Of a DNA stretch of 64,000 bases, positions 20,628 to 61,117 are shown piece after piece. Below the pieces are notes generated by a model. It was not told where the DNA came from and did not search any database. It saw only the letters and a program-made list of their open reading frames with translations. Location of the stretch: the NCBI GenBank assembly GCA_001414345.1, contig LLCB01000105.1, positions 62,001-126,000 on the forward strand, written 5' to 3'. How positions within the stretch are numbered: the first letter of the stretch is position 1; each line of letters begins with the position of its first letter. A program made the position numbers and the translations under genes. This DNA comes from Hymenoscyphus infarciens (lineage: Eukaryota; Ascomycota; Leotiomycetes; Helotiales; Helotiaceae).

Positions 20628-23402
20628 CTAATCTAAACCGATCCACTCCGCATCCTCATCAATATCGTCGACCATTTCCTCATCTCCCCCAAACCCATTG
20701 GTAACACTCCTCTGTCCATCTTGTGGACCAACCTTCGCCACCGGTTGACTGGTCAAATAATCGATCGTATATACATTCTCATCTGCTAACCTTCTCAGTT
20801 CATCTCTGATTTTGCCCACAGCTCTTGCTACAACCCTCAATTCCGCGTCGACCTGCCCTCTGTTGTCACTCACCCACTGGCCATGAGAAACTAATATAGC
20901 TTGCACCCAGAGAAGACAGAATTCGAGATGAGGAGATTCTTCTGTTTGTAGAGATACGAAACGGAGAAGGCGTGGGATGTAGACAATAGGTAGTTCGGAA
21001 ACGACCAGGGAGATGTTAGGGTGAGGGATAGCCTCGAAGACCCGACGCAGGAGAGGTGCCTCGTTGAGGCGGAATGCCATGACGAGAGCTTTAAGGTAGT
21101 CTTTGTCTTTTTCTAGGACGTGTAAGGTTGATGCGGGGGTTACCGCGAGGTCGAGATCGATAGGATCGAAGAGAGGGATTGTGTCGAGACTATAAATGAG
21201 GAGCCCTTCTGTTGAAGCAGCACAGAAGGAGCGACCGGTAGGAGCAAATGCTAGACCTGTGACGCGGACTTCAGGGTTGTGTTTTCGTGCTGATGGATCA
21301 CCACCACGCGTTGAACCTGGTAGAGTTTTGTCAAGACGGTCCTCGAGATCTGAGGCTTCGCCTTGCTCGTCAATGAGACCAGCAGCTCCAGCTTCTGTCA
21401 GCAATCTGCTGTTCAAGAATTCTTGCGTTCCAGAAAGTGATAGATTGATGCTGACAGTGAAGCGCTTCAAAAGTACGAGCGAGGCAACCGAGTACAAACA
21501 AATGTACTTGCTGTTTCCACCTGCAAGTACGCAACTTCCATCCGAGCTATATCTCAGGGTACTGAAGCTTTTGTTTCCAGATGCATTTGCAGCAGTTCTT
21601 CGGTCTCCTATTTTTCGACCACCGGATACATCTCTTCTCCCGTCCACGCCTGATTGTTGCTCCGCTTCAGAAACCGACCAGAATGTTAATTGGCCATCCA
21701 ACGTGGAAACCGCAAGTTGTCGTGAATCGGGTCGAAATGCAACATCTAATACATCTGCCTGAAGTTGCAGCGGCTCGCTCGTTTGTGTTCGATCGAAAAC
21801 CGACCATATTCGAACAGTGTGATCCCAACTTCCACTAACGACCACACCGCCATTAGGTGCAAATGCCAGTGATGAGACGGGTCCCTCATGACCTGCTAAT
21901 CTATCAAGCAGTTGTCCAGTCTGGACAGACCAGATGTGAATGTCGAAGGAGTCGAGAGATCCGGCACAAACAACTTCGCCACTGGGATCAACTGCTAGGC
22001 AAGAGAATGAGAGTCGTGTTGGCGCTGTAAATGTCCGGAAATTTCGATATCTGATCAAGTCCCACGCTCTTATCGACCCGTCGAGACTTGATGTGAAAAG
22101 CACGTTCCCTCGTTTTGCAAATTCGCAAGCTGTCACTCCACTGGTATGTTCAGTGAAAGTAACGATACAAAATCCCGAGTTAACATCCCAAACTTTGATC
22201 TTTCCGTCATCGGCAGTGGTAACAACTCTTTGTCCGTCTGGAGAGTAAACCAAGGCATTCATCGAATCGAAATGTCCTTGTTGCTTCAAAATATATGACT
22301 CCGATTGCCATTCCCAAACCAGAAGTTGTCCTAATTTTGAGGCCCCAAATGCCAGCCATTCGCCAGTTTTGTTGATAGTGACAAAATCAATGTCATTTTG
22401 CGAAATGCTCAGCGTGTGTATCATGTCAAACTCCGGCATTTCGTACAAACCAAAAACTCCATTCGAAAAGCCTGCCACTAACAAATTCGTTTCCGGGTGA
22501 AATACTGCACACTTTACTTTTGCGTTGTTTTGTAAAAAGTAATTCCGTTGCGTGATACGCCATCTCTCATCAACTCCGTCATCTTTCATTTCATTAATAT
22601 CTGACTCTGGCGCATTAAGACGCTCGACATATTCCCATTGGAATACCGCACCATCTTTACTAACAGTGTAAATCGTCTCCTGGTCTTTGGAAAAGTATGC
22701 CCCAATCACGCCTTCTCTGTGACCTGCCAGTGTTGTTGGTACAAACTCGGGCATGGGATCAAGACTCCATATTCGAGCGGTCAAGTCCTTAGCAGAACTT
22801 AAGAAGAAAAGGGAATCACCCGACCATTCGATGTGCTGTACGGTATCGAAATGTCCGGCATACACTCTATGGCGCACAAAAGGCGCAAATTCTAACTCCC
22901 CATGGATATTTTGATCTGGTGTTGAAGGTGTATGCCATACTTCAATATGTCGTCCAACTCCTACAGCGATGTGTCGTCCAGATGGGGCAAAGGAAAGGGC
23001 TGTAACTGCTCCCTTGAATGAAAAGTGATGTAGAACGATCCGTCGGGGAACATTGGTTAAAATTGCGCGGCCGTCCTCGTCAATCGATAGTAGGAGATTA
23101 CCCCGCGGTGTGAGGCCAATTCGTGCGATGTTCTTTCGATGTGCGAATGGGAGGGTATGGGATTTGTTACTGCGAAAAGGTCAATAATCTTCTATAGAGT
23201 TTGGAGAATGGATTCGTACTTTACGAGGTCGAAGACCGTAACGCGATTGCCCACAGGCGAAAAGAGGCATGATCCATCCGGGCTGAATAGCAGGTTTCCC
23301 TGGCTGTAAACAGTCCCCAAAAGGTTGGAGAACTTTGGAAATAGTCAATATAGATATCCCAAAACTCGAGGGTGAGCTTCCTACCTTAAACTCCGTCTTC
23401 AT
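20628..23402 (-). CDS. PWP2: Periodic tryptophan protein 2 (Pwp2/Utp1), U3 snoRNP component
   Basis: WD40 scaffold of the UTP-B complex of the small-subunit processome, acting in 18S rRNA maturation in the nucleolus. Three exons, 23402-23385 (six codons, MKTEFK), 23332-23220 and 23169-20628, give 890 aa, close to the ~920 aa of the yeast protein. The joins are in frame (EFK-FSNLLGTVYSQ; DLVN-NKSHTLPFAH). Two WD40 propellers fill residues ~1-640, with many GH...WD units (for example GHREGVIGAYFSKD, GHEGPVSSLAFAPNG). The C-terminal Utp12-type helical domain follows (DYLKALVMAFRLNEAPLLRR). The acidic end contains DDIDEDAEWIGLD. The tiny first exon is supported by the conserved MKTEFKFSNL start. 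Confidence 0.93.
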
Positions 23403-33747: not shown

Positions 33748-34268
33748 TAATCGCTCGGTCCACCTCTCACCTAATCCGCTTCGTGTATTGGGTAAGGGAG
33801 GGTAATACGATAAAACCAGTAATATAACCACTTTTAGTTTACACTAAAATACGTTGTTTTTAAAAATATATAATAAAACAACAACGCTTTATTATATTCT
33901 AATTTTAATTAAGGTCTCTTATTTTAAACTTAATAAATAGAAATATAAAGTAAGATTTATCTATCTAGTATCTATCTAGTTCTTAAATCTAACTTCTAAG
34001 AAAGCTACTACTAAATCTCTAGAAAAATTTAGTAAAGCCTAGAATATAGAAGATATAATTATATTTTAAAGATTAAATATAAGTTTAAGCTATATATTAA
34101 TAGTAGGAACATATTAGAGTAGTTTTAGTAGCAAAGGTAGGGAGTTATTAGAGGCTAGTTAAGGCGATTTTAGTATAAACAAAAGTGGTCGTATTACTGG
34201 TTTTATCGTATTACCCTCCCTCACCTAATACGCGAAGCGGATTGGGTGAGAGGTGGACCGAGCGATTA
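33748..34268. mobile_element. MITE copy 1, TA-flanked, long terminal inverted repeats
   Basis: The 517-bp element (33750-34266) starts ATCGCTCGGTCCACCTCTCA and ends with its inverse; the inverted ends run about 90 bp. TA lies on both sides, as for Tc1/mariner-type insertions. The interior is very TA-rich and has no transposase. A near-identical copy lies at 56436-56954. Where the two differ, this copy usually has T for C before A, or A for G after T, the RIP signature, so it looks the more mutated of the two. Confidence 0.9.
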
Positions 34269-43085: not shown

Positions 43086-44110
43086 TGCAGACCTATGCAG
43101 CAGAGGAACAAAATGCGACGTTCTTTCCGTCCCTGTTGAGGTTGGGACGAGTCTTGGGGTTCGGGATGCCTGAAGGATGATTAATGAAGAGGATAGAAAC
43201 TGAATAGTGCCTTCCTTTTCTTCTCCCTTGGTCGGTCTCTGGGACTGAGTTGAAAAATGGAAAGGCAGGAGCGAGGGAAAGAGGGGGTTTCTTGGTTCTC
43301 AGTGAAAAGCATGGAACGATTGAGGTCACTTCGCGATTTGGTTCAAGACTGGGTCCATTTTGTGGAGTTTCTTAGAGCTGTGTATTTCTGAGGAAGGAGG
43401 AAGGATTTTATTTTTGCGTTTTGGCTTTGTAAGTATGAGAAAGTTGGCAAGTTGGGATTGGGTTGGAGCTTACTAGTATGCCCTAGGAATGGTGTCTAGG
43501 ATGTTATAGCACGTTGTGGCTCATATCTTTACAACAGCAGAAGATAACGGTTCCCCTTCAAACATACCACTTACAGTCAGGTGTGCATTCTATCTAGCCT
43601 TCTTCTCTCATTATAGTAATTAATTCTTTCCGAAAGAGCTAGCCATTTACGATAAACTCCCTTCTTCACTTTTTGCAAGCTTCGCTTCTACGTCGTCATA
43701 CCACCCAATATTAGTGACACGGGAATATAGGATAAGCTAAGGTGTTAGCGCGAATTAAATGGGTGCATCTCATCTGTTTCCAGGTTCTGTTTAAGGGCGA
43801 TGGACCTTTCTCTCACATCTTTCTTTCTTTCTGCACTTGGAGGTACGTCTACTCGATTTATAGACAGGAGCAAGCATTTGCATTTATACTCCGTTGTCGT
43901 GTTTTGTTCGTCATTCAACGACTACCCATCTATTTCTCTTTTCAACTCCCCTTTTCTATTGGTTTGTCTTATCAAGTCTTATATCCTGCATCACTGTTGT
44001 TGGGTGGTCTTCGGTAGGTGGCATTCGGGGCCTTACATATATGCCGCCTGTAGAAGTTTCATCGACATATTAAAATAGCCAGTAACAAAGCGCCACAATC
44101 ATGTCGTCGC
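43086..44110. other. GC-balanced island between TA-rich blocks, no supported gene
   Basis: About 1 kb of normal composition. Open frames at 43093-43329 (-) and 43742-44078 (+) show no recognisable domain, and two frames overlap without a clear winner. It may be unmutated spacer or a decayed gene. Confidence 0.4.
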
Positions 44111-47100
44111 AGTGAGAGTAAGGGGAAGGTATAAAGAGAACCTTTTAGTATATAAGGCTAACTGTCTCCTTTTTTCCAAGTAAACTTTCGTAAATTTGTT
44201 TCTTAATTTACTGTTCGGCTTTATAGTACAGATTTATAGATTAGATTATACTCGTTTTTTCACAGCGATACTATCTAAAAAGAAAAAAAAAAATCAAGAA
44301 AGGATAAGCTATCACCTACTACAAAATCTCCACTAGTACGTAATCCTAGATTTTACAAAGGACATAATAGTATTAGTTTTATTATTAGGCTAAAAACCTA
44401 GAAGCTAAGAGGAAGAAGTCTTAAACTCTAATATATACTCTAAATATTTTCTTTAGTCTAGCTTTTAAATACTTTAGTTATCTTTTTCCTCTTACTAATA
44501 CTTCTATCTAATATAATTAAGTTAATACTTTATAAGAATTAGAGCTAGTAGCTTAGACTTAGTTTAGATATTAATTAAGTTAAGCTATTAAATAATATTA
44601 TAAAAGAAGCTAATAATAATCCGTATAGTAGAGTAAGTCTTTCTAAACTTACGACTATATATCTCTTAATCTAATTTCGTTATAATAAACGCTATTAACT
44701 CTCTAGTTTTATCTCCTTTCTTATAATTAGATCTATATAGAAACTCTATACTAATATCTACTTAGTACTTAATAATAGTTATATAAGTATTCTATTTAAG
44801 TTACTATGTCTATATATATTTTATAACTCTCTTAAAGTTATTAAATCAGCTAGTATAGTTATAAATCTAATAGAATAAAAGTTTCTAGCTAGTTTACTAC
44901 GTTTATAAAGTTTAAAAGTATATTTCAAGATTAAGTAGTATAGATATAGTACTTATATAAAGGCGGCTATAATTATAGATACTATTAAAGAATATATCTA
45001 CGAGACTTTAGAAACACTCTCTTATAGATTCTTTAAATTAGATAGTATTACTAGTAATATCTAGAATATTATACTACTATAATATATTATTAAAAATAGA
45101 GTTTAATATATACTTATTATACTATATAATTCTAATAATATTTAATTATAAAACTATTAATATTATTAGTATTTTAATTAATATTATAATAATACTATCT
45201 CTTTAGTTCGCTATATAACTTATATATAGATATAATTAGAAGTCTAGTCTAAAACTACTTCTATTTAGATTAGAATTATACTAAAATCTAAGTAGCTTTA
45301 AACTACGATACTACTAAACTAGTTTAGAAGTGCTAAGATATTAAGATCTAAATTAAAGCTATTTATACTTCTTATTATATATATAATAGTAGTACTATCT
45401 CTTCTTTAAATCTCTCTAGCTCTTTTATCACTATTATACTTATATTAAATAAGATTAGAATTATACTTATTATTAAGAAACACGTCTAAAGAGCGTACTT
45501 AAGAGGCCTGCTTTTTAAAAGCTTTTTTAGTAGTTTTAAAAGCTCTTTTAATAGACCTTTTAGTACTAGAAGTAGTACTCGTCTTACGTTATTCTAGAGA
45601 AAGTATATTAAGTAAAAAGAAAGATAAAAGAGTATAAAAGTCGTAGTAAAAGTAGATAAAGGAAAATTAGCTTATATACTTCTATTATAAACTAACTTAT
45701 ACTAAAATAATTTTTTTTTAGTAGAGTTTAAGAAATAAGATAATAATTTAATTATTTAGTCGCGTTAGAGCTAGAAATATAAGATTAGAACTATCTTCTA
45801 TTAAAACACGTAAGTTATATAGTAAACTAAAAAGAGAGTAGTACTATATTTATTAGATTTAATCTTTTTACTTTAGATTTTAAATCTACTTATTTTTAGT
45901 CTTATACTATAGAATTATATAATATAATATATAAAGTAAAAAGTATATATCTAAATAACTAGATTTATTAATCTAATTAAATAGAGTATTTTAAAAAAAT
46001 AATTATATTAGTAGCTTATAAAATAGTTATAAAATTATTTCTTATATAGCTTATTAAAAGTAATTTATATAAGATATAAAAAGTTTATTTTTAGACTTTA
46101 CTATATAAGTTATTAAAGAATATATAATTAATACTATTATAATATTAAGTAAGTAGTATAATATAATAATAATCTTTAGTTTAAAAATAAATATAGACTA
46201 TTAATTTATTCTAATAATATATTTATTTAAAAAAATAATATTACTAGTAGTACTAGAACTAGATATCTTAACTAGTAGTATTAATTTAAAAATAAAGAAA
46301 GTTTAAAGTCTCTTAGTAAAGCTCTTTTTAAAAATAAATTTATAGAATATCTTTATATTCTAAAGAGTACTATTTCTCTAGAGATCTATAGATAGATTAT
46401 AATAGATAGTAAATTTCTCTATAAATTAGCTTATCTCTACTAAGCTTAAGAGAGAGTTAATATTTATAAATATAATAGCTCTAAGAATAGAAAAGATAGT
46501 ATAGATTATATAAGAAATAGTTAGATTAGATTAGATTAATAACCTTTTAATTAATCTAATCTTAGATTAGTAAGATCTAACTTTTTTAATTAAATTAACC
46601 AAAAGTGATTAATTAGATTATTAATTAATTAAGTGATTAAAAATAGCACGTGACCGGCACGGAGGTATCGGAGACCGGGTCGGGCCCCGGGGTAGAGTCG
46701 GAGTAGCGTTCTAGTACTACCGAGAGCTTAGGCGAGACCTTCTAAGTAGTCTTTTTATAACGTAACTTCTTTATTTTAAGTCTTAATAAATTAGCTATTA
46801 ATTATTTATTAATAAACATCTATTAATAATAGATCTCGTTATTAATTTAAACTTTAAAAGCTTTATATATAATAACTATATACTATATATAGTCTATTAA
46901 TTATATTAATTAATTAATTAATAATTAAAATAGATTAATTAATCTAATCTAATTAATATACGTGCTAATTAATAATCAGCTTAATCTAAAGTTATTAATT
47001 AGATTAATAATTACTTAAATAATTAATTTATACTTATACTAGATTAAGAAGAGAAAGTATAATAGAAGATTTTAAGTAATAAAGAAAATAGATAAAATTA

Positions 47101-48869: not shown

Positions 48870-50095
48870 AGATATAAGCACTAACTACTAAACATATAAG
48901 TCGTCATAAACAAATCTAGTTTAGACTAAAAGCCACTAACAGAACATAAGTATATTTAATTCCACGTGGTCTTAAACAAGAGCTTTATACTATGTAATAT
49001 CTAGTAACGAATAATATGTCGAGCGTATAAATTAAGAAAGCTAGATTTTCTATAGTAATAAGTGTTTTAGAATATATATAGTAGAATACTAAGATATAAA
49101 GACTTAAAACCTATACGCGGTGTATTCTACGAACCTCTAGTAGCTCTATTCTAGCTCTAGAGCTATTTATAGAGCTAAGTTTAAGTTAAAACTATAATAT
49201 AGTAATATCTCTTTTTATAAATATTAGAGTTTTAAGTCTCTTAATATTCTATAAAGAAGCTACGTTATATATTATAATATACTAGTATTAATAATAAAGA
49301 CCTATAGAGCTTATTTACTTAATAGTAGTATCTATAGACTACTAAACTAAACTAATTAAGAAAGCCTCTAAAGTTAATACTATATACTCGCTAATACTAG
49401 ATAACTTCTATTCTAGATATACTATAGAATTATATATAACTTTAAGAAAGTAAGAGCTATATACCGACTTAAAATTAGAAGTAATATACGTAGTAGTTAT
49501 TCTATATAATTAGTCTAATACTATATTCGAGTTAAGAGAATTACTAGAAAGAGTAAAGAACTCTTAGCAAAAGTAATAGAGTAATAAGAAGAGATCTTAG
49601 TAGTATAAATAGAAGTATAAAGCTAGAGAAGTCTTTATAACTAGAGAATAAATTCTCTATTATTTATAATATTATACGTAGATATTTAAAGTATATTTAG
49701 TAGTATATTAGATAAAGTAGTATAAATATCTCTAGAAAAGTATAAAACTATAGAGTAGAGAGAATAGAGAATAGAACTAGAAGACTTAGATTTAAGATAT
49801 ATTAGAGAAAGATTCTATATAAGATAATATACTAAAAGATAATTATTATTATTCCTATATAGAGAAGTGCTAACTAAGCTCTTATAAGAGCTAGTATATT
49901 ATATCTAATCTATCTATACTAGTAACGAAATAGAGAGAAATAGAGGAGATACTAAGCTATTACTAGAAAGCTTTAAATAATAGACGTAAAGCTTAATATA
50001 GATAAGTCTAGTAATAGATACTCTAAGAAGTATATAAGCTCCTCTAATAAAACTCTATAAATAAGTACGTCTATATAACGTCTCTCTAGTAGCTA
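48870..50095. repeat. TA-rich, RIP-like block
   Basis: TA-dominated, stop-filled DNA ending abruptly at about 50,095, where sequence of normal composition encoding a truncated gene begins. It is probably a RIP-mutated transposon that inserted into, or replaced, the 5' part of that gene. Confidence 0.6.
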
Positions 50096-55827: not shown

Positions 55828-58800
55828 ATGAGCGCTTCAGACGAACAGGCAGCAGGTGTGAAGACCGAGCCAGGGTCAGATAAGAAATCCAAACCAAAGG
55901 ACGACGAATTTGATTGGAATTCTGATCATGAGGAGAAGAACAAAGAGGACAAAACCGTTGCTTTCCAGAAGTTATACAGGCCCATCCGATCCGCGTTTCT
56001 GATCCACCTCATCCAGAAGGGGTTACCTCAGGAGCAAAGAGGAATCTTTTATTTCCTTATGATACAGTTTCACGAAGACTTGGACTCGCCACTTCTTGTT
56101 TACTCGGCATTACCTGCGGTTCTAATGGGGTATTACCCAAAAGTTTCTCCCCTGTTGGTGTACAGCACGACTCGTGGAATTGATGGGTACAGAAGAATGG
56201 AGCATAAGGGTTTTTGGGAGGTTCTGATGCCTTCAGTTATATATTCGATTTCTTCCTACGGTTTTGCAAGGTTGTTTGACTTTAGGGGAATGACGGAGGA
56301 GGTTTTTGAACCCATCTTTGGGCCGGCATCGGGGTGGCCCGCTGCGCTGCTTCCGATCTTCCCTGGCATGTTCTTGCGATTTGTTAATGAACGGCCGAAC
56401 TCCATCAATGGGTTTGTTCCAGAGAACAAACAGGGTAATCGTTCGGCTCCACTTCTCACCCAATCCGCTTCGCGTATTGGGTGAGGGAGGGCAATACGAT
56501 AAAACCAGCAATACGACCACTTTTAGTTTACACCAAAATACGTTGTTTTTAAAAATATATAACAAAACAACAACGCTTTATTATATTCTAATTTTAATTA
56601 GGGTCTCTTATTTTAAACTTAATAAATAGAATTATAAAGTAAGATTTATCTATCTAGTATCTATCTAGTTCAATCTAACTTCTAAGAAAGCTACTACTAA
56701 ATCTCTAGAAAAATTTAGTAAAGCCTAGAATATAGAAGATATAATTATATTTTAAAGATTAAATATAAGTTTAAGCTATATATTAATAGTAGGAACATAT
56801 TAGAGTAGTTTTAGTAGCAAAGGTGGTGAGTTATTAGAGGCTAGTTAAGGCGATTTTGGTGTAAACAAAAGTGGTCGTATTGCTGGTTTTATCGTATTGC
56901 CCTCCCTCACCCAATACGCGAAGCGGATTGGGTGAGAGGTGGACCGAGCGATTATTTGGATAGCGGTTTTCGCCCGTGCCTGCACTGCCGTTCTCCCCAC
57001 AGCGGTTTGTTGGCCAATATGGGTTGCATACACAGCTCCAAGCGTGGAGTATCCTGTCATGTTTATTGACTGGCTTGTTTGTAGTTTTTGTTGGTCCTCT
57101 TCGGAAACCTCGCTGTTGGGAGCGTATGCGATATGGCTCCTGGTCAACCAATATCGACATACGAGCAGCTGGTTTCGAAATTCTGGTGGTGGTCCTTCGG
57201 TTGTTCTCGAGCGTGAACGTCGCGGAACACTATGGTATATTGCTGCAATCATTTTGATTCAGCTCATCGAAGTTGAAATAGGCCCCTCTGTTGTGGAAAA
57301 CGAATCCATGACCCTTCGTCCCGAGGTCTGGATCCCCTTCGCTCTCCTTTTAGTCACCGGGGTATATCTTCTGAAATATGGAGTGATGCTCCGCATCTAC
57401 AAGTACAACCACAAGCCATTGAAGGAAGGGCCAAATATTCGACTGGTACGACTTCGTGCACAACCACGTTGGGTAAACGCTCCAATTCAATGCGATATGA
57501 TTTATACCTCGCTAAGATGTCCGCCACAATACACAGCAGTCTCGCATCGTTGGGATCTATACGGTGTGCCTCAAGAGATGATATTGATTGACGGTGGTCT
57601 TTTTCCAGTCTCTCGTAGTATATATTCCCTCCTGTTAGCCAAGCGACATTATCTCCATCCTCGCTACTTCTGGATTGATTCGATATGCATTAATCAAGAG
57701 GACAATCTTGAGAAAAGCAGGCAGGTGGGAATGATGCGGAACATTTATGAGGAGGCGGAAAATACGCTAGGGTGGCTGGGGGATGATCCAGGCGCAAAGA
57801 AAGCTTTTGCCTTGGTCGGTCGCATTAACACGACGACCTCAGCCGCCTCGTTTACAAGTCTTTGGTCAGAGCCAGATTCGGGATGGGGCGAATTTCGAAC
57901 TCTCATGTCAAATGAATGGTTTGAACGAGTTTGGATTATTCAGGAAATAGCTGTTTCCAAGGCTCAAATAATCCGATACGGAGACCAGGAGATGGAATGG
58001 CAGAATCTCACTGACGCACTGGCTCGTGTTATGTATTTCGGTTTCAGTGTGGAAAACGATTTGGGTGAACTGCTCAATCGACGAGAAGTTCTCAGTGCCT
58101 TGGTCATGGAGGAAGTCAGGTCACATATCGCAAAGGTCGATCTTGTCAAGCTGCAGGATACACTCAAACTTGCAATTGGATTTAGAGCAACTCTTCCTAT
58201 CGACAGGATTTATGCACTTCTTGGGCTTGTCGCGGAACGTTACACACCACTTTTCCATCCAAGATTCGGCATGTCTGCTGACATCGGCAGCAAAGACCCA
58301 CGAATGGCATTGAAAGATACAGTAGAAACAATGGAGCTTCTGAGCGAGATTATTGGGACTGCAACAGGGCGTTCGAATTCTAGAAGGGGCCGAGCTATTC
58401 TATCTTCGGGTACAGAAAATGCGCTTCGTCATACACTGCTCTTGATGTCGAATATGAAGAACCTCACCAATAAGATTGAGAAGATGGGTAAAGGGAGCTT
58501 TGATGAGGAGCCAATACGACCTGATTACTCTGGAAAAGCTACAGCCCAATTGGTCTACACGCATGTAACCAGAGATATTGTTCAAAAGGGGGACGCTCTC
58601 TCTTTCATTCGATATGCTGGAATCGGTAACCCCCCAAACCAGGATTTGGATGGACTACCTTCTTGGGTTCCAGATTGGTCGACAGATGCTCGGGTCTATA
58701 TTCTCCCTTGGCGAAAGTATACGCCACCAATCAATGATGAGGCAGGGGACAAACCACCTGCGCAGCGAACTCCCATTTTCCAAGACGGAGGTTCGAAATT

Positions 58801-59701
58801 CTTGTTTGTCAAAGGCTTGATAGTCGGTAACATCGCACATTCAGCTCCTCTCACGTGGGATTACGATTCTAATCAGTATGCGGACGACGAAGAAGAAACC
58901 CAAGCAGAGAGCGACTTCACCAAACTCTCCTCGAATCTTCAGGCTGCATTCGACCTCGCCAAACAGCACGTTAAGCCTCAATCAACCAAAAGTGCTCTAC
59001 AAGATGCCTTCCATCGAGTGTTAATTGCTGATTCAATCCCCGATGGTGATTCCACTGCATCATCGATGCGTACCTGGATTCCCGGGTCCCCAGTAACGCC
59101 CCCCATACTAGCAGCAAAGAATTTCAAAGAATACCTTGCCAAAACCCCGCGTCCTCAAACTTCCGAATCTGTTCAACGCTACCAAAGAACTGTTTTCAAA
59201 AAATACCTCTCTACGCGACGTATACAAACCTCCGCAAATTCGAAGTTTGCTCATCTTGTGCGTGCTGATGTTGTTCCTTCTTTTGATCAATATCGTACAT
59301 ATTCTAAAGATGCAAGCCAGTTTTCTATTTTGAAGAAAGATTCGGCTGGGCCGCTGGCTGGGTATGCGCAGTATGTTGATTATACTATTGGCAGGGCCTT
59401 TGTTGTTACGGATCGGGGGGTGATGGGATTGGCTTGTTCTGAGTCGAGGGTAGGGGATGTTGTTGTGTGGATTGAGGGTGATGGAAGGGTTGTTTGGCTT
59501 ATTTTGAGGGAAGAGGAGTTTGAAGGGGAAGTTAATAATGATGGTGTTGTATCTTCCGGGGAGGATAAAAGACCCGAGGATAGTGAGAGAAGTGATCCGG
59601 AGTATCATGGAACTTACCGGTTGGTTGGCGAGGCTTATATTCATGATTCTGATTCTCGACATGGGAATGTCGATGACTTGAAATGGTTCAGGTTGTGGTA
59701 A
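55828..59701 (+). CDS. HET-domain membrane protein gene, split by a MITE
   Basis: HET proteins mediate incompatibility-type cell death in filamentous fungi. The 5' part (55828-56437, starting MSASDEQAAG) and the 3' part (56955-59701) are separated by a 515-bp MITE. Read directly, the 5' frame runs into the element and stops at 56484, and the 3' frame has no ATG until 57061. Removing the element plus one TA gives GGT-ATT-TGG at the junction and one continuous frame. The N-terminus is acidic/basic and soluble; several hydrophobic segments follow on both sides of the insertion (for example PEVWIPFALLLVTGVYLL). The HET domain begins near 57530: YTAVSHRWD, then YFWIDSICINQEDNLEKSRQ and MMRNIYEEAENTLGWLGDD. 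It is either a disrupted allele or spliced across the insert. Confidence 0.8.
56436..56954. mobile_element. MITE copy 2, inserted in the HET-domain gene
   Basis: 515-bp element (56438-56952) with ~90-bp terminal inverted repeats; the right end (CTCACCCAATACGCGAAGCG) is the inverse of the left (CGCTTCGCGTATTGGGTGAG). TA target duplications lie at 56436-56437 and 56953-56954. No transposase, so it is non-autonomous and would have been moved by a Tc1/mariner-type enzyme. It is nearly identical to copy 1 at 33748 and keeps more C and G, so it is likely the better preserved copy. Confidence 0.93.
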
Positions 59702-60289
59702 TTATGTTAGCTATGATGAATCCGCATCGCAACTTATTTCTGCGGATACCACCTGATGCGTTGTTTTTTTTCTTTCAATTCTAGAACAAGTCCTGATTAC
59801 ATGTACATGGTTCCGATTCCTCAGGGGGCTTTTTTAGGAGTTCCGATCAAAGTTTGTCAACTCAATTCAAAAGCTACCTAGTGTCTATGACATTAAATTC
59901 CCATCCTTTGTCAGACAACAAACAACAATTCATATTAACACGCAATGCCCCCAAGTAAACCCAGAGAATCATGAAAAGAGTCGGTGGGTGTGAACACGTG
60001 AGCCGATTTTGGCCCCCAATCTTGGTATTGGCTTACTCCACATTCACTGGCTCATTCGATGATTAGAAGCTTACCCGCTACTTCTTCTGGCCCCTACACT
60101 TGTTTGGTTTACTCCATGTTTAATAGCTTACTAGGTTCTTTTTAGACTATAACCTTTGTCTAGCTTACTTATAGGTTACTTATAGGTTGCTCTTCAATTA
60201 ATAGCTTACTCGCAACTCGCTTTTCGCCCTCAAATTTGACGGCTTACTCGCTACCAAAGTTGAGAGAATCTTATCCTAGGCTATTTCGA
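59702..60289. other. 3' flank of HET gene with repeated GCTTACT motif
   Basis: Non-coding. The string GGCTTACT or AGCTTACT recurs several times between 60,027 and 60,250, interspersed with C/T-rich stretches. It is possibly a degenerate repeat leading into TA-rich DNA. Confidence 0.4.
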
Positions 60290-60960
60290 ATAATCGTTTA
60301 AAAAAACTAGTGTCCTAGACTCTTTATATATCTGCTCTCCTTCTTATCACTTTATCAACTACTAGACATTTTGAAAAAAATTTCATAGGTAACTAAGAGG
60401 TGAAAATCAAGCTAATTCTCTCTGTTAAACACTTCTAAGTTATTTTATATATTATAAGAAGTAGAGTATATATGAAAATAAAAAATAAAGTATAGATTCG
60501 ATATACTTTAGTTACTTAATAGAGAATCTATTACTATAGTAAACCTACTAAATTATATATAGTAAATATAAAAGTGTTAGTTAATAGAAATTTCGAGATA
60601 GTTAAACATAGTAATACTAAAGTAGTTTACTTAATAAAATTAGTTAAAACCACTTTAGATAAAGAAGATAATTAAATAAAGTTAGAATTTTCCAAAAAAA
60701 AAACTAAATTTAGTCTTATTATTATTTATAGAAGTTACTCTGCTATTTCTAGAATAAGAATCTTTAAATTTATAGAATAGAATTCTAATATATCTACTTT
60801 TCAGAGTCGAATTTCTCTAAATAAAGTTATTCTAAATCGTGAAGCGTATATTAAATATTCTAGTAGATTCGTTTCTAAAGCACTTAAAAGATCTATAATA
60901 AGAGTATATATAAAAAGGCTTCATAGATAAGGTATATAGGTACTTAGATAAACTACTTTC
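60290..60960. repeat. TA-rich, RIP-like block
   Basis: Stop-filled TA-rich DNA, consistent with a RIP-mutated repeat. The edges are approximate. Confidence 0.55.
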
Positions 60961-61117
60961 AAAGGTAGCGTAAAGGCGACTAGATTGCTAGCACACTGTA
61001 AGCACAGCCCTGCTTGAACTCGAAGGAGATATATGCTACGCGCTTTAACCACTGTAGTAACAATGAACTTATATTTATCTCGATTAACAACTATACAATA
61101 GTTACCTCACAAGAAAC

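What the first reader, a model, noticed from the sequence alone, without database searches (positions are those of the whole stretch)
55828..59701. A MITE splits a HET-domain membrane protein gene, and removing it with one TA restores the frame exactly
The 5' and 3' coding parts are each open up to the element. The insert has TA on both sides and ~90-bp inverted ends. Collapsing to a single TA joins the codons GGT-ATT-TGG without shift or stop. This is strong evidence for a recent insertion into a functional gene that controls self/non-self cell death, so it may change the vegetative compatibility type of this strain.
Basis: partly seen in the sequence, partly recalled or inferred. Interest (0 to 1): 0.8.

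Follow-up and report, generated by a model that had tools for sequence, protein, structure and literature searches.

The report
Jumping element splits fungal HET gene
In this fungal genome a 515-base non-coding jumping element sits inside the only copy found of a HET-domain gene, and a relative keeps the same protein unbroken with the exact join the empty site predicts; it is a clear but ordinary kind of gene disruption, and nothing yet shows that this gene controls self/non-self recognition.

Summary
Observation confirmed. A 515-bp element (56438-56952) lies between TA dinucleotides inside a HET-domain gene (55828-59701) found once in this genome. Its inverted ends are 100-102 nt. An unbroken relative (P0001, 1115 aa, 92% and 88% identical to the two pieces) reads G-I-W at the site, as the empty TA allele predicts; in 23 of 24 measurable relatives exactly two residues separate the two matches. 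The element is a non-autonomous Tc1/mariner-type (Fot1/pogo-like) MITE: 28 of 28 other full-length copies, of 39 fetched, have TA on both sides, and its ends match a ~2.0-kb element, one copy of which holds the only DDE_1 transposase match found, with 10 stops. Retained, the insert stops translation after 218 aa, before the HET domain. The coding pieces show no decay (23 derived residues against 24 in the relative) and no RIP signature. The insertion is probably young, but no second strain could be checked. The claim that it changes vegetative compatibility is unsupported: only a few per cent of HET-domain genes are known incompatibility genes (PMC10890737). Splicing of the insert is not excluded but has no positive support.

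The parts
55828..56433 (+). 5' coding piece of the HET gene, 202 codons, ending in ..RPNSINGFVPENKQ
   Evidence: 92% identical to P0001 residues 1-201; no Pfam match; one match in the genome
56434..56435 (+). first two bases of the interrupted glycine codon; glycine in 26 of 26 sequences of alignment A1 with a residue there (27 rows, one gap)
56436..56437 (.). left TA (target site duplication)
56438..56952 (.). MITE, 515 bp, GC 0.33; no frame of 80 aa or more lies wholly inside it
56438..56539 (.). left terminal inverted repeat, 102 nt, with a 31-nt inner palindrome at 56455-56485
56853..56952 (.). right terminal inverted repeat, 100 nt, with the inner palindrome at 56906-56936
56482..56484 (+). 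stop codon met by read-through from the 5' piece (product 218 aa)
56953..56954 (.). right TA (target site duplication)
56957..59701 (+). 3' coding piece, 914 codons plus stop, HET domain (PF06985) at residues 192-330 of the piece; first in-frame ATG at 57059
   Evidence: 88% identical to P0001 residues 204-1115

Best explanation
A non-autonomous DNA transposon (MITE) of the Tc1/mariner type, probably moved in trans by the transposase of a ~2.0-kb Fot1/pogo-like relative that is now riddled with RIP-type mutations, inserted at a TA in codons 203-204 of a HET-domain gene that is found once in this genome and has no other interruption. Shown here: element anatomy, TA duplication, copy family, ends shared with the larger element, degenerate DDE_1 transposase, relatives' proteins with the exact empty-site join, no decay of the coding pieces. 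Inferred: the sequenced strain carries a null allele. Translation would stop after 218 codons, far upstream of the HET domain; the 3' part could be made only from an internal start (880 aa from ATG 57059). The insertion is probably young compared with the split from P0001's lineage, but its age and frequency in the species are unknown.
For: TA on both sides here and at 28 of 28 other full-length copies, out of 39 other copies fetched. 58 genome matches to the outer-end pattern at up to 3 mismatches, 0 to the reversed control. The ends are 86-94% identical, over 75-89 nt, to those of elements at C558 and C173, copies of which recur; the only DDE_1 match found in the assembly, with 10 stops, lies inside the C173 element. 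P0001 reads G-I-W; 23 of 24 relatives have exactly two residues there. Derived residues 23 (window) v 24 (P0001); where at least 6 of 8 outgroups agree, the window departs at 7 sites and P0001 at 14. Coding pieces without RIP signature: 0.55/1.28 and 0.58/1.33. The N piece has one match in the genome and the next best match of the C piece is 29% identical.
Against: No DNA of an empty allele was seen; the empty site is known from proteins only. No RNA data, so loss of function is inferred. The relative-rate test places only 47 of 117 differences, because the outgroup is 59% identical; 23 of 47 has a 95% interval of 0.34-0.64, so moderate relaxation is not excluded. The element's own RIP indices (1.37 and 0.62) pass the RIP thresholds. 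No working transposase was found, which fits less easily with 'very recent'. An internal promoter or splicing could preserve some function.
Confidence: 0.9

Rival explanations
1. The insert is spliced out as an intron and the gene still works. The host G before the TA makes a GT donor at 56435-56436; an AG ending at 56936, 56948, 56963, 57002 or 57035 keeps the frame; the long stem brings the two ends together.
For: In-frame GT..AG pairs exist; the AG ending at 57002 follows a pyrimidine-rich stretch and looks like a fair acceptor. Neither coding piece shows decay. The stem is very stable, -250.6 kcal/mol against a mean of -106 for 100 shuffles. Fungi have multi-copy introns, introner-like elements (PMC4457414, passages seen).
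Against: 20 GT..AG pairs keep the frame, so frame-keeping is cheap. The only strict CTRAY branch-like sites are at 56588 and 56675, over 250 nt before those AGs (looser motifs were not scanned). The donor GTAATC lacks the G at position 5 usual in fungal introns (recalled). The AGs inside the element follow G, not a pyrimidine; those ending at 56963, 57002 and 57035 lie in host sequence and would remove 4, 17 and 28 residues (from the lengths). Of 29 full-length copies only this one lies in a long open frame; 9 of 28 other sites have G before the TA.
Confidence: 0.06
2. The gene was already dispensable and the insertion is a neutral passenger (compatible with the best explanation; it differs on whether anything was lost that mattered).
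For: HET matches are numerous here: 50 listed, of 94 candidates 50 were scored; 9 of the other 49 have stops inside the match (some may be introns).
Against: No other lesion and no excess of derived residues.
Confidence: 0.2
3. The split creates a new product: a HET-domain protein without its N-terminal part, started at ATG 57059 from a promoter in or near the MITE, with altered cell-death activity.
For: The 3' frame is open and keeps the whole HET domain. [quoted passage not shown]
Against: No evidence of a promoter or transcript there; none was looked for.
Confidence: 0.04
4. Assembly artefact: the element was wrongly placed in the gene.
For: The element is repetitive and some copies run into contig ends (L024 and L026); the reads could not be examined.
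Against: The copy is distinct (best other copy 98%), has clean TA borders like 28 other copies, and both flanking pieces are unique and collinear with intact relatives.
Confidence: 0.02

Closest known systems
Tc1-mariner MITEs of Sclerotinia sclerotiorum (PMC4188875, passages seen)
   Same: Six MITEs of 481-813 nt belonging to Tc1-mariner families, in a fungus of the same order (order recalled).
   Different: Those families show no RIP signature by the two indices; the larger relative here is strongly marked (1.77 and 0.25). Sequence relation not tested.
mimp MITEs of Fusarium oxysporum (PMC3599309, search listing with abstract start only)
   Same: Short fungal MITEs; TA target (recalled).
   Different: Reported in promoters of effector genes, while this one lies inside a coding frame; terminal sequences differ (recalled).
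HET-domain incompatibility genes such as het-B of Podospora anserina (PMC10890737, passages seen)
   Same: Share the Pfam HET domain, PF06985.
   Different: Bh has an N-terminal HET domain and a lectin-fold domain; here the HET domain follows about 390 residues with hydrophobic segments. No allelic or incompatibility data here.
Introner-like elements of Dothideomycetes (PMC4457414, passages seen)
   Same: Multi-copy, near-identical elements; here one inside a gene.
   Different: Those are spliceosomal introns in unrelated genes; here 1 of 29 full-length copies is in a long frame and splice signals are poor.

Membership tests
MITE of the Tc1/mariner (Fot1/pogo) type | Short, non-coding, with terminal inverted repeats | tested here: met
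   515 bp, arms 102 and 100 nt; no frame of 80 aa or more wholly inside it
MITE of the Tc1/mariner (Fot1/pogo) type | TA target-site duplication | tested here: met
   This copy and 28 of 28 other full-length copies, of 39 fetched
MITE of the Tc1/mariner (Fot1/pogo) type | Many near-identical copies | tested here: met
   86 candidate places, 40 scored, best other copy 98%; 58 outer-end matches, control 0
MITE of the Tc1/mariner (Fot1/pogo) type | Ends shared with an element that encodes a DDE_1 transposase | tested here: met
   Ends 86-94% identical to the C558 and C173 elements; DDE_1 match of 37.5 bits (cut-off 22) inside the C173 element, with 10 stops
MITE of the Tc1/mariner (Fot1/pogo) type | Moved in trans by that transposase | not testable with these tools
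   Needs an excision assay; no intact transposase found by DDE_1 and DDE_3 searches
MITE of the Tc1/mariner (Fot1/pogo) type | Transposase clade (pogo versus Tc1) by phylogeny | not tested
   Only a degenerate DDE_1 stretch; no tree made. That DDE_1 marks pogo/Fot1 rather than Tc1 is recalled
Vegetative incompatibility (het) gene | HET domain PF06985 | tested here: met
   E 3.5e-26, 92.7 bits, full profile
Vegetative incompatibility (het) gene | Alleles or partner that trigger cell death on fusion | not testable with these tools
   No second strain and no experiment
Vegetative incompatibility (het) gene | Polymorphism under balancing selection within the species | not testable with these tools
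   One genome only; no relatives of it are held
Introner-like element | Copies lie as introns in many genes | tested here: not met
   1 of 29 full-length sites in a long open frame; genes with introns nearby would be missed by this test
Introner-like element | Splice donor, branch site and acceptor near the ends | tested here: inconclusive
   GT and AG present, no strict CTRAY branch site near the AG; looser motifs not scanned

The most novel reading that the evidence does not exclude
The MITE acts as a new-born intron: its long stem brings a host-derived GT and an AG at or just past its right end together, the insert is spliced out in frame at some level, and the HET gene stays functional, which would explain why neither coding piece shows decay.
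Probability: 0.06. Interest if true: 0.6.

Novelty: new member of a known kind. Interest (0 to 1): 0.3.

Why it matters
It is a clean natural disruption of a little-studied HET family: a protein of about 1100 aa with hydrophobic segments before the HET domain, alignable end to end with relatives as far as Colletotrichum, and without a sequence match among solved structures at E up to 0.1. If empty alleles segregate in the species, the two alleles form a natural experiment on what this HET protein does, including whether it has any role in fusion or cell death. It also documents a RIP-eroded transposon family that left many small, better preserved derivatives.

Tried and rejected
Frame-keeping splice pairs as evidence of splicing: rejected, 20 pairs keep the frame. 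Introner family: not favoured, only 1 of 29 sites is in a long frame. DDE_3 transposase as the source: three degenerate matches, on contigs not listed. An intact larger copy: L091 (C558 element) and L092 (left part of the C173 element) show no closed frame of 60 aa or more; for L093 (right part) frames were not listed, and the DDE_1 row there gives an open frame of 109 aa and 10 stops within the match; the other copies were not read. So 'no intact transposase' rests on the DDE_1 and DDE_3 searches. Dating the insertion by divergence from sister copies: given up, because copies differ largely by RIP-type changes (C to T: CpA 155 on 20 sites per copy, CpT 65 on 74). dN/dS against P0001: not possible, only its protein is held. 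Nine paper searches: 0 papers for MITE + HET domain + vegetative incompatibility + insertion and 0 for MITE + inserted + coding sequence + Helotiales; the other lists were read by title and abstract start, apart from passages of four papers. The library lacks most subscription papers, so this does not show that no such case is in print.

Full report
What is there. The window lies in a 65.6-Mb assembly of 742 contigs. A conserved neighbour gene (PWP2, 20631-23180, minus strand) has its best-scoring relative, 90% identical, in Amylocarpus encephaloides; an unnamed partial protein (P0148) is 98% identical over 83% (120 of 3896 hits listed). Amylocarpus belongs to Leotiomycetes, Helotiales, so the organism is probably an unnamed member of that order (inference). 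At 55828-59701 a gene is open from ATG 55828 through codon 202, is interrupted by 56438-56952, and is open again to the stop ending at 59701. The 3' piece carries a full HET domain (PF06985, E 3.5e-26).

The empty site. Searching the 3' piece alone gave 103 proteins; only the 7991 candidates sharing most words were scored. The best, P0001 (source label lgn, 1115 aa), matches the 5' piece at 92% (residues 1-201) and the 3' piece at 88% (residues 204-1115), and reads ENKQ-GIW between them. That is the join predicted by one TA. Its DNA was not seen. Of the 103 hits, 28 match both pieces; in 24 of these both matches reach the site, and 23 have exactly two residues between them, one (P0022) three. 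In alignment A1 (27 rows) the glycine is present in 26 of 26 rows with a residue there, and P197, E198 and G202 of P0001 are nearly invariant. A hydrophobic stretch of P0001 begins at residue 202 (hydropathy only), so the insertion sits at the start of a possible membrane segment.

The element. It is 515 bp with arms of 102 and 100 nt, each containing a 31-nt palindrome, flanked by TA. One search found 86 candidate places and scored 40; I fetched 39 other copies. Of these 28 align over the full element and all 28 have TA on both sides; the other 11 align only partly. A pattern of the outer end, up to 3 mismatches, occurs 58 times and its reversed control never. As RNA the element with both TA is a long hairpin (-250.6 kcal/mol; 100 shuffles mean -106, sd 6).

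Its source. Outer-end matches at C558:128103 and 130110 bound a 2.0-kb element with 89-nt ends; a related copy at C173 is split by an insert of about 4.3 kb with direct repeats of about 357 nt (89% alike) at its ends (the middle of the insert was not read). The only match to DDE_1 (PF03184) in the assembly is in the C173 element, at C173:5272-5667, over the cut-off but with 10 stops. DDE_3 gives three degenerate matches elsewhere. More copies of the larger element exist (40 of 112 candidates scored). [quoted passage not shown] The MITE is thus best explained as a passenger of a Fot1/pogo-like family whose transposase gene, where seen, is wrecked. The interior of the MITE is not clearly related to the larger element (about 40 nt at 77%).

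Age. The MITE copies differ largely by RIP-type changes: over 29 copies C to T changes number 155 at CpA (20 sites per copy), 70 at CpC (33), 64 at CpG (34) and 65 at CpT (74). The copy here has 2 changes of the C-to-T kind against 11 of the opposite kind, relative to the commonest base, so it is among the less eroded; its own indices (1.37 and 0.62) still pass the RIP thresholds, so the family as a whole may descend from an eroded sequence. The gene pieces show no RIP signature (0.55/1.28 and 0.58/1.33). With P0002 as outgroup, 23 differences are derived in the window and 24 in P0001; where at least 6 of 8 outgroups agree the window departs 7 times and P0001 14 times. Only 47 of 117 differences can be placed, and the 95% interval for 23 of 47 is 0.34-0.64, so this speaks against a long period of free decay but not against a modest one. 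No second isolate was available.

Effect. Retained, the insert shifts the frame and stops translation at 56482-56484, giving 218 aa without the HET domain. No second copy of either piece was found. The strain most likely carries a null allele; a HET-bearing product of 880 aa from ATG 57059 is possible only with an internal start. Splicing was examined: 20 GT..AG pairs keep the frame, so that is no evidence by itself; strict branch-like CTRAY sites are at 56588 and 56675 only; one host AG (ending at 57002) looks like a fair acceptor but would cost 17 residues.

What it does not show. A HET domain does not make a gene a vegetative-compatibility locus. PMC10890737 (passages seen) gives 4 of 132, 3 of 94 and 4 of 65 HET-domain genes as incompatibility genes in P. 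anserina, C. parasitica and N. crassa, and PMC10197012 (passages seen) says that only a minute fraction function in allorecognition (5 of 125 in P. anserina by its count). This genome has 50 listed HET matches, the gene itself included. That hints at a patchy, perhaps dispensable gene.

Verdict. The case is a good example of a known process.

Noticed in passing
window 33748-34268: A second full-length copy of the same MITE (95% identical, TA on both sides); its joined flanks show no long open frame (L063).
   Followed up: partly
L094 (G000:C1:33350-33427) and L095 (G000:C742:115652-115731): Tiny elements of 78 and 80 bp, both TA included, made of little more than the end sequence and its inner palindrome.
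   Followed up: partly
L092 and L093 (G000:C173:230-6481): A ~2.0-kb RIP-marked Fot1/pogo-like element split by an insert of about 4.3 kb with ~357-nt direct repeats at its ends, perhaps an LTR retroelement; only parts were read.
   Followed up: partly
window 44001-47000, 49001-50000, 60001-61000: AT-rich blocks (GC 0.20-0.29 per kb) with strong RIP indices beside genes of normal GC.
   Followed up: no
relatives of window 55828-59701 (P0001-P0031): A HET family alignable end to end in distant fungi, but no named Helotiales among the 28 hits that match both pieces: patchy, by loss or transfer, or only unnamed.
   Followed up: no
G000, one search list: 9 of the 49 other listed HET matches contain stops inside the match, which may be pseudogenes or introns.
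   Followed up: no
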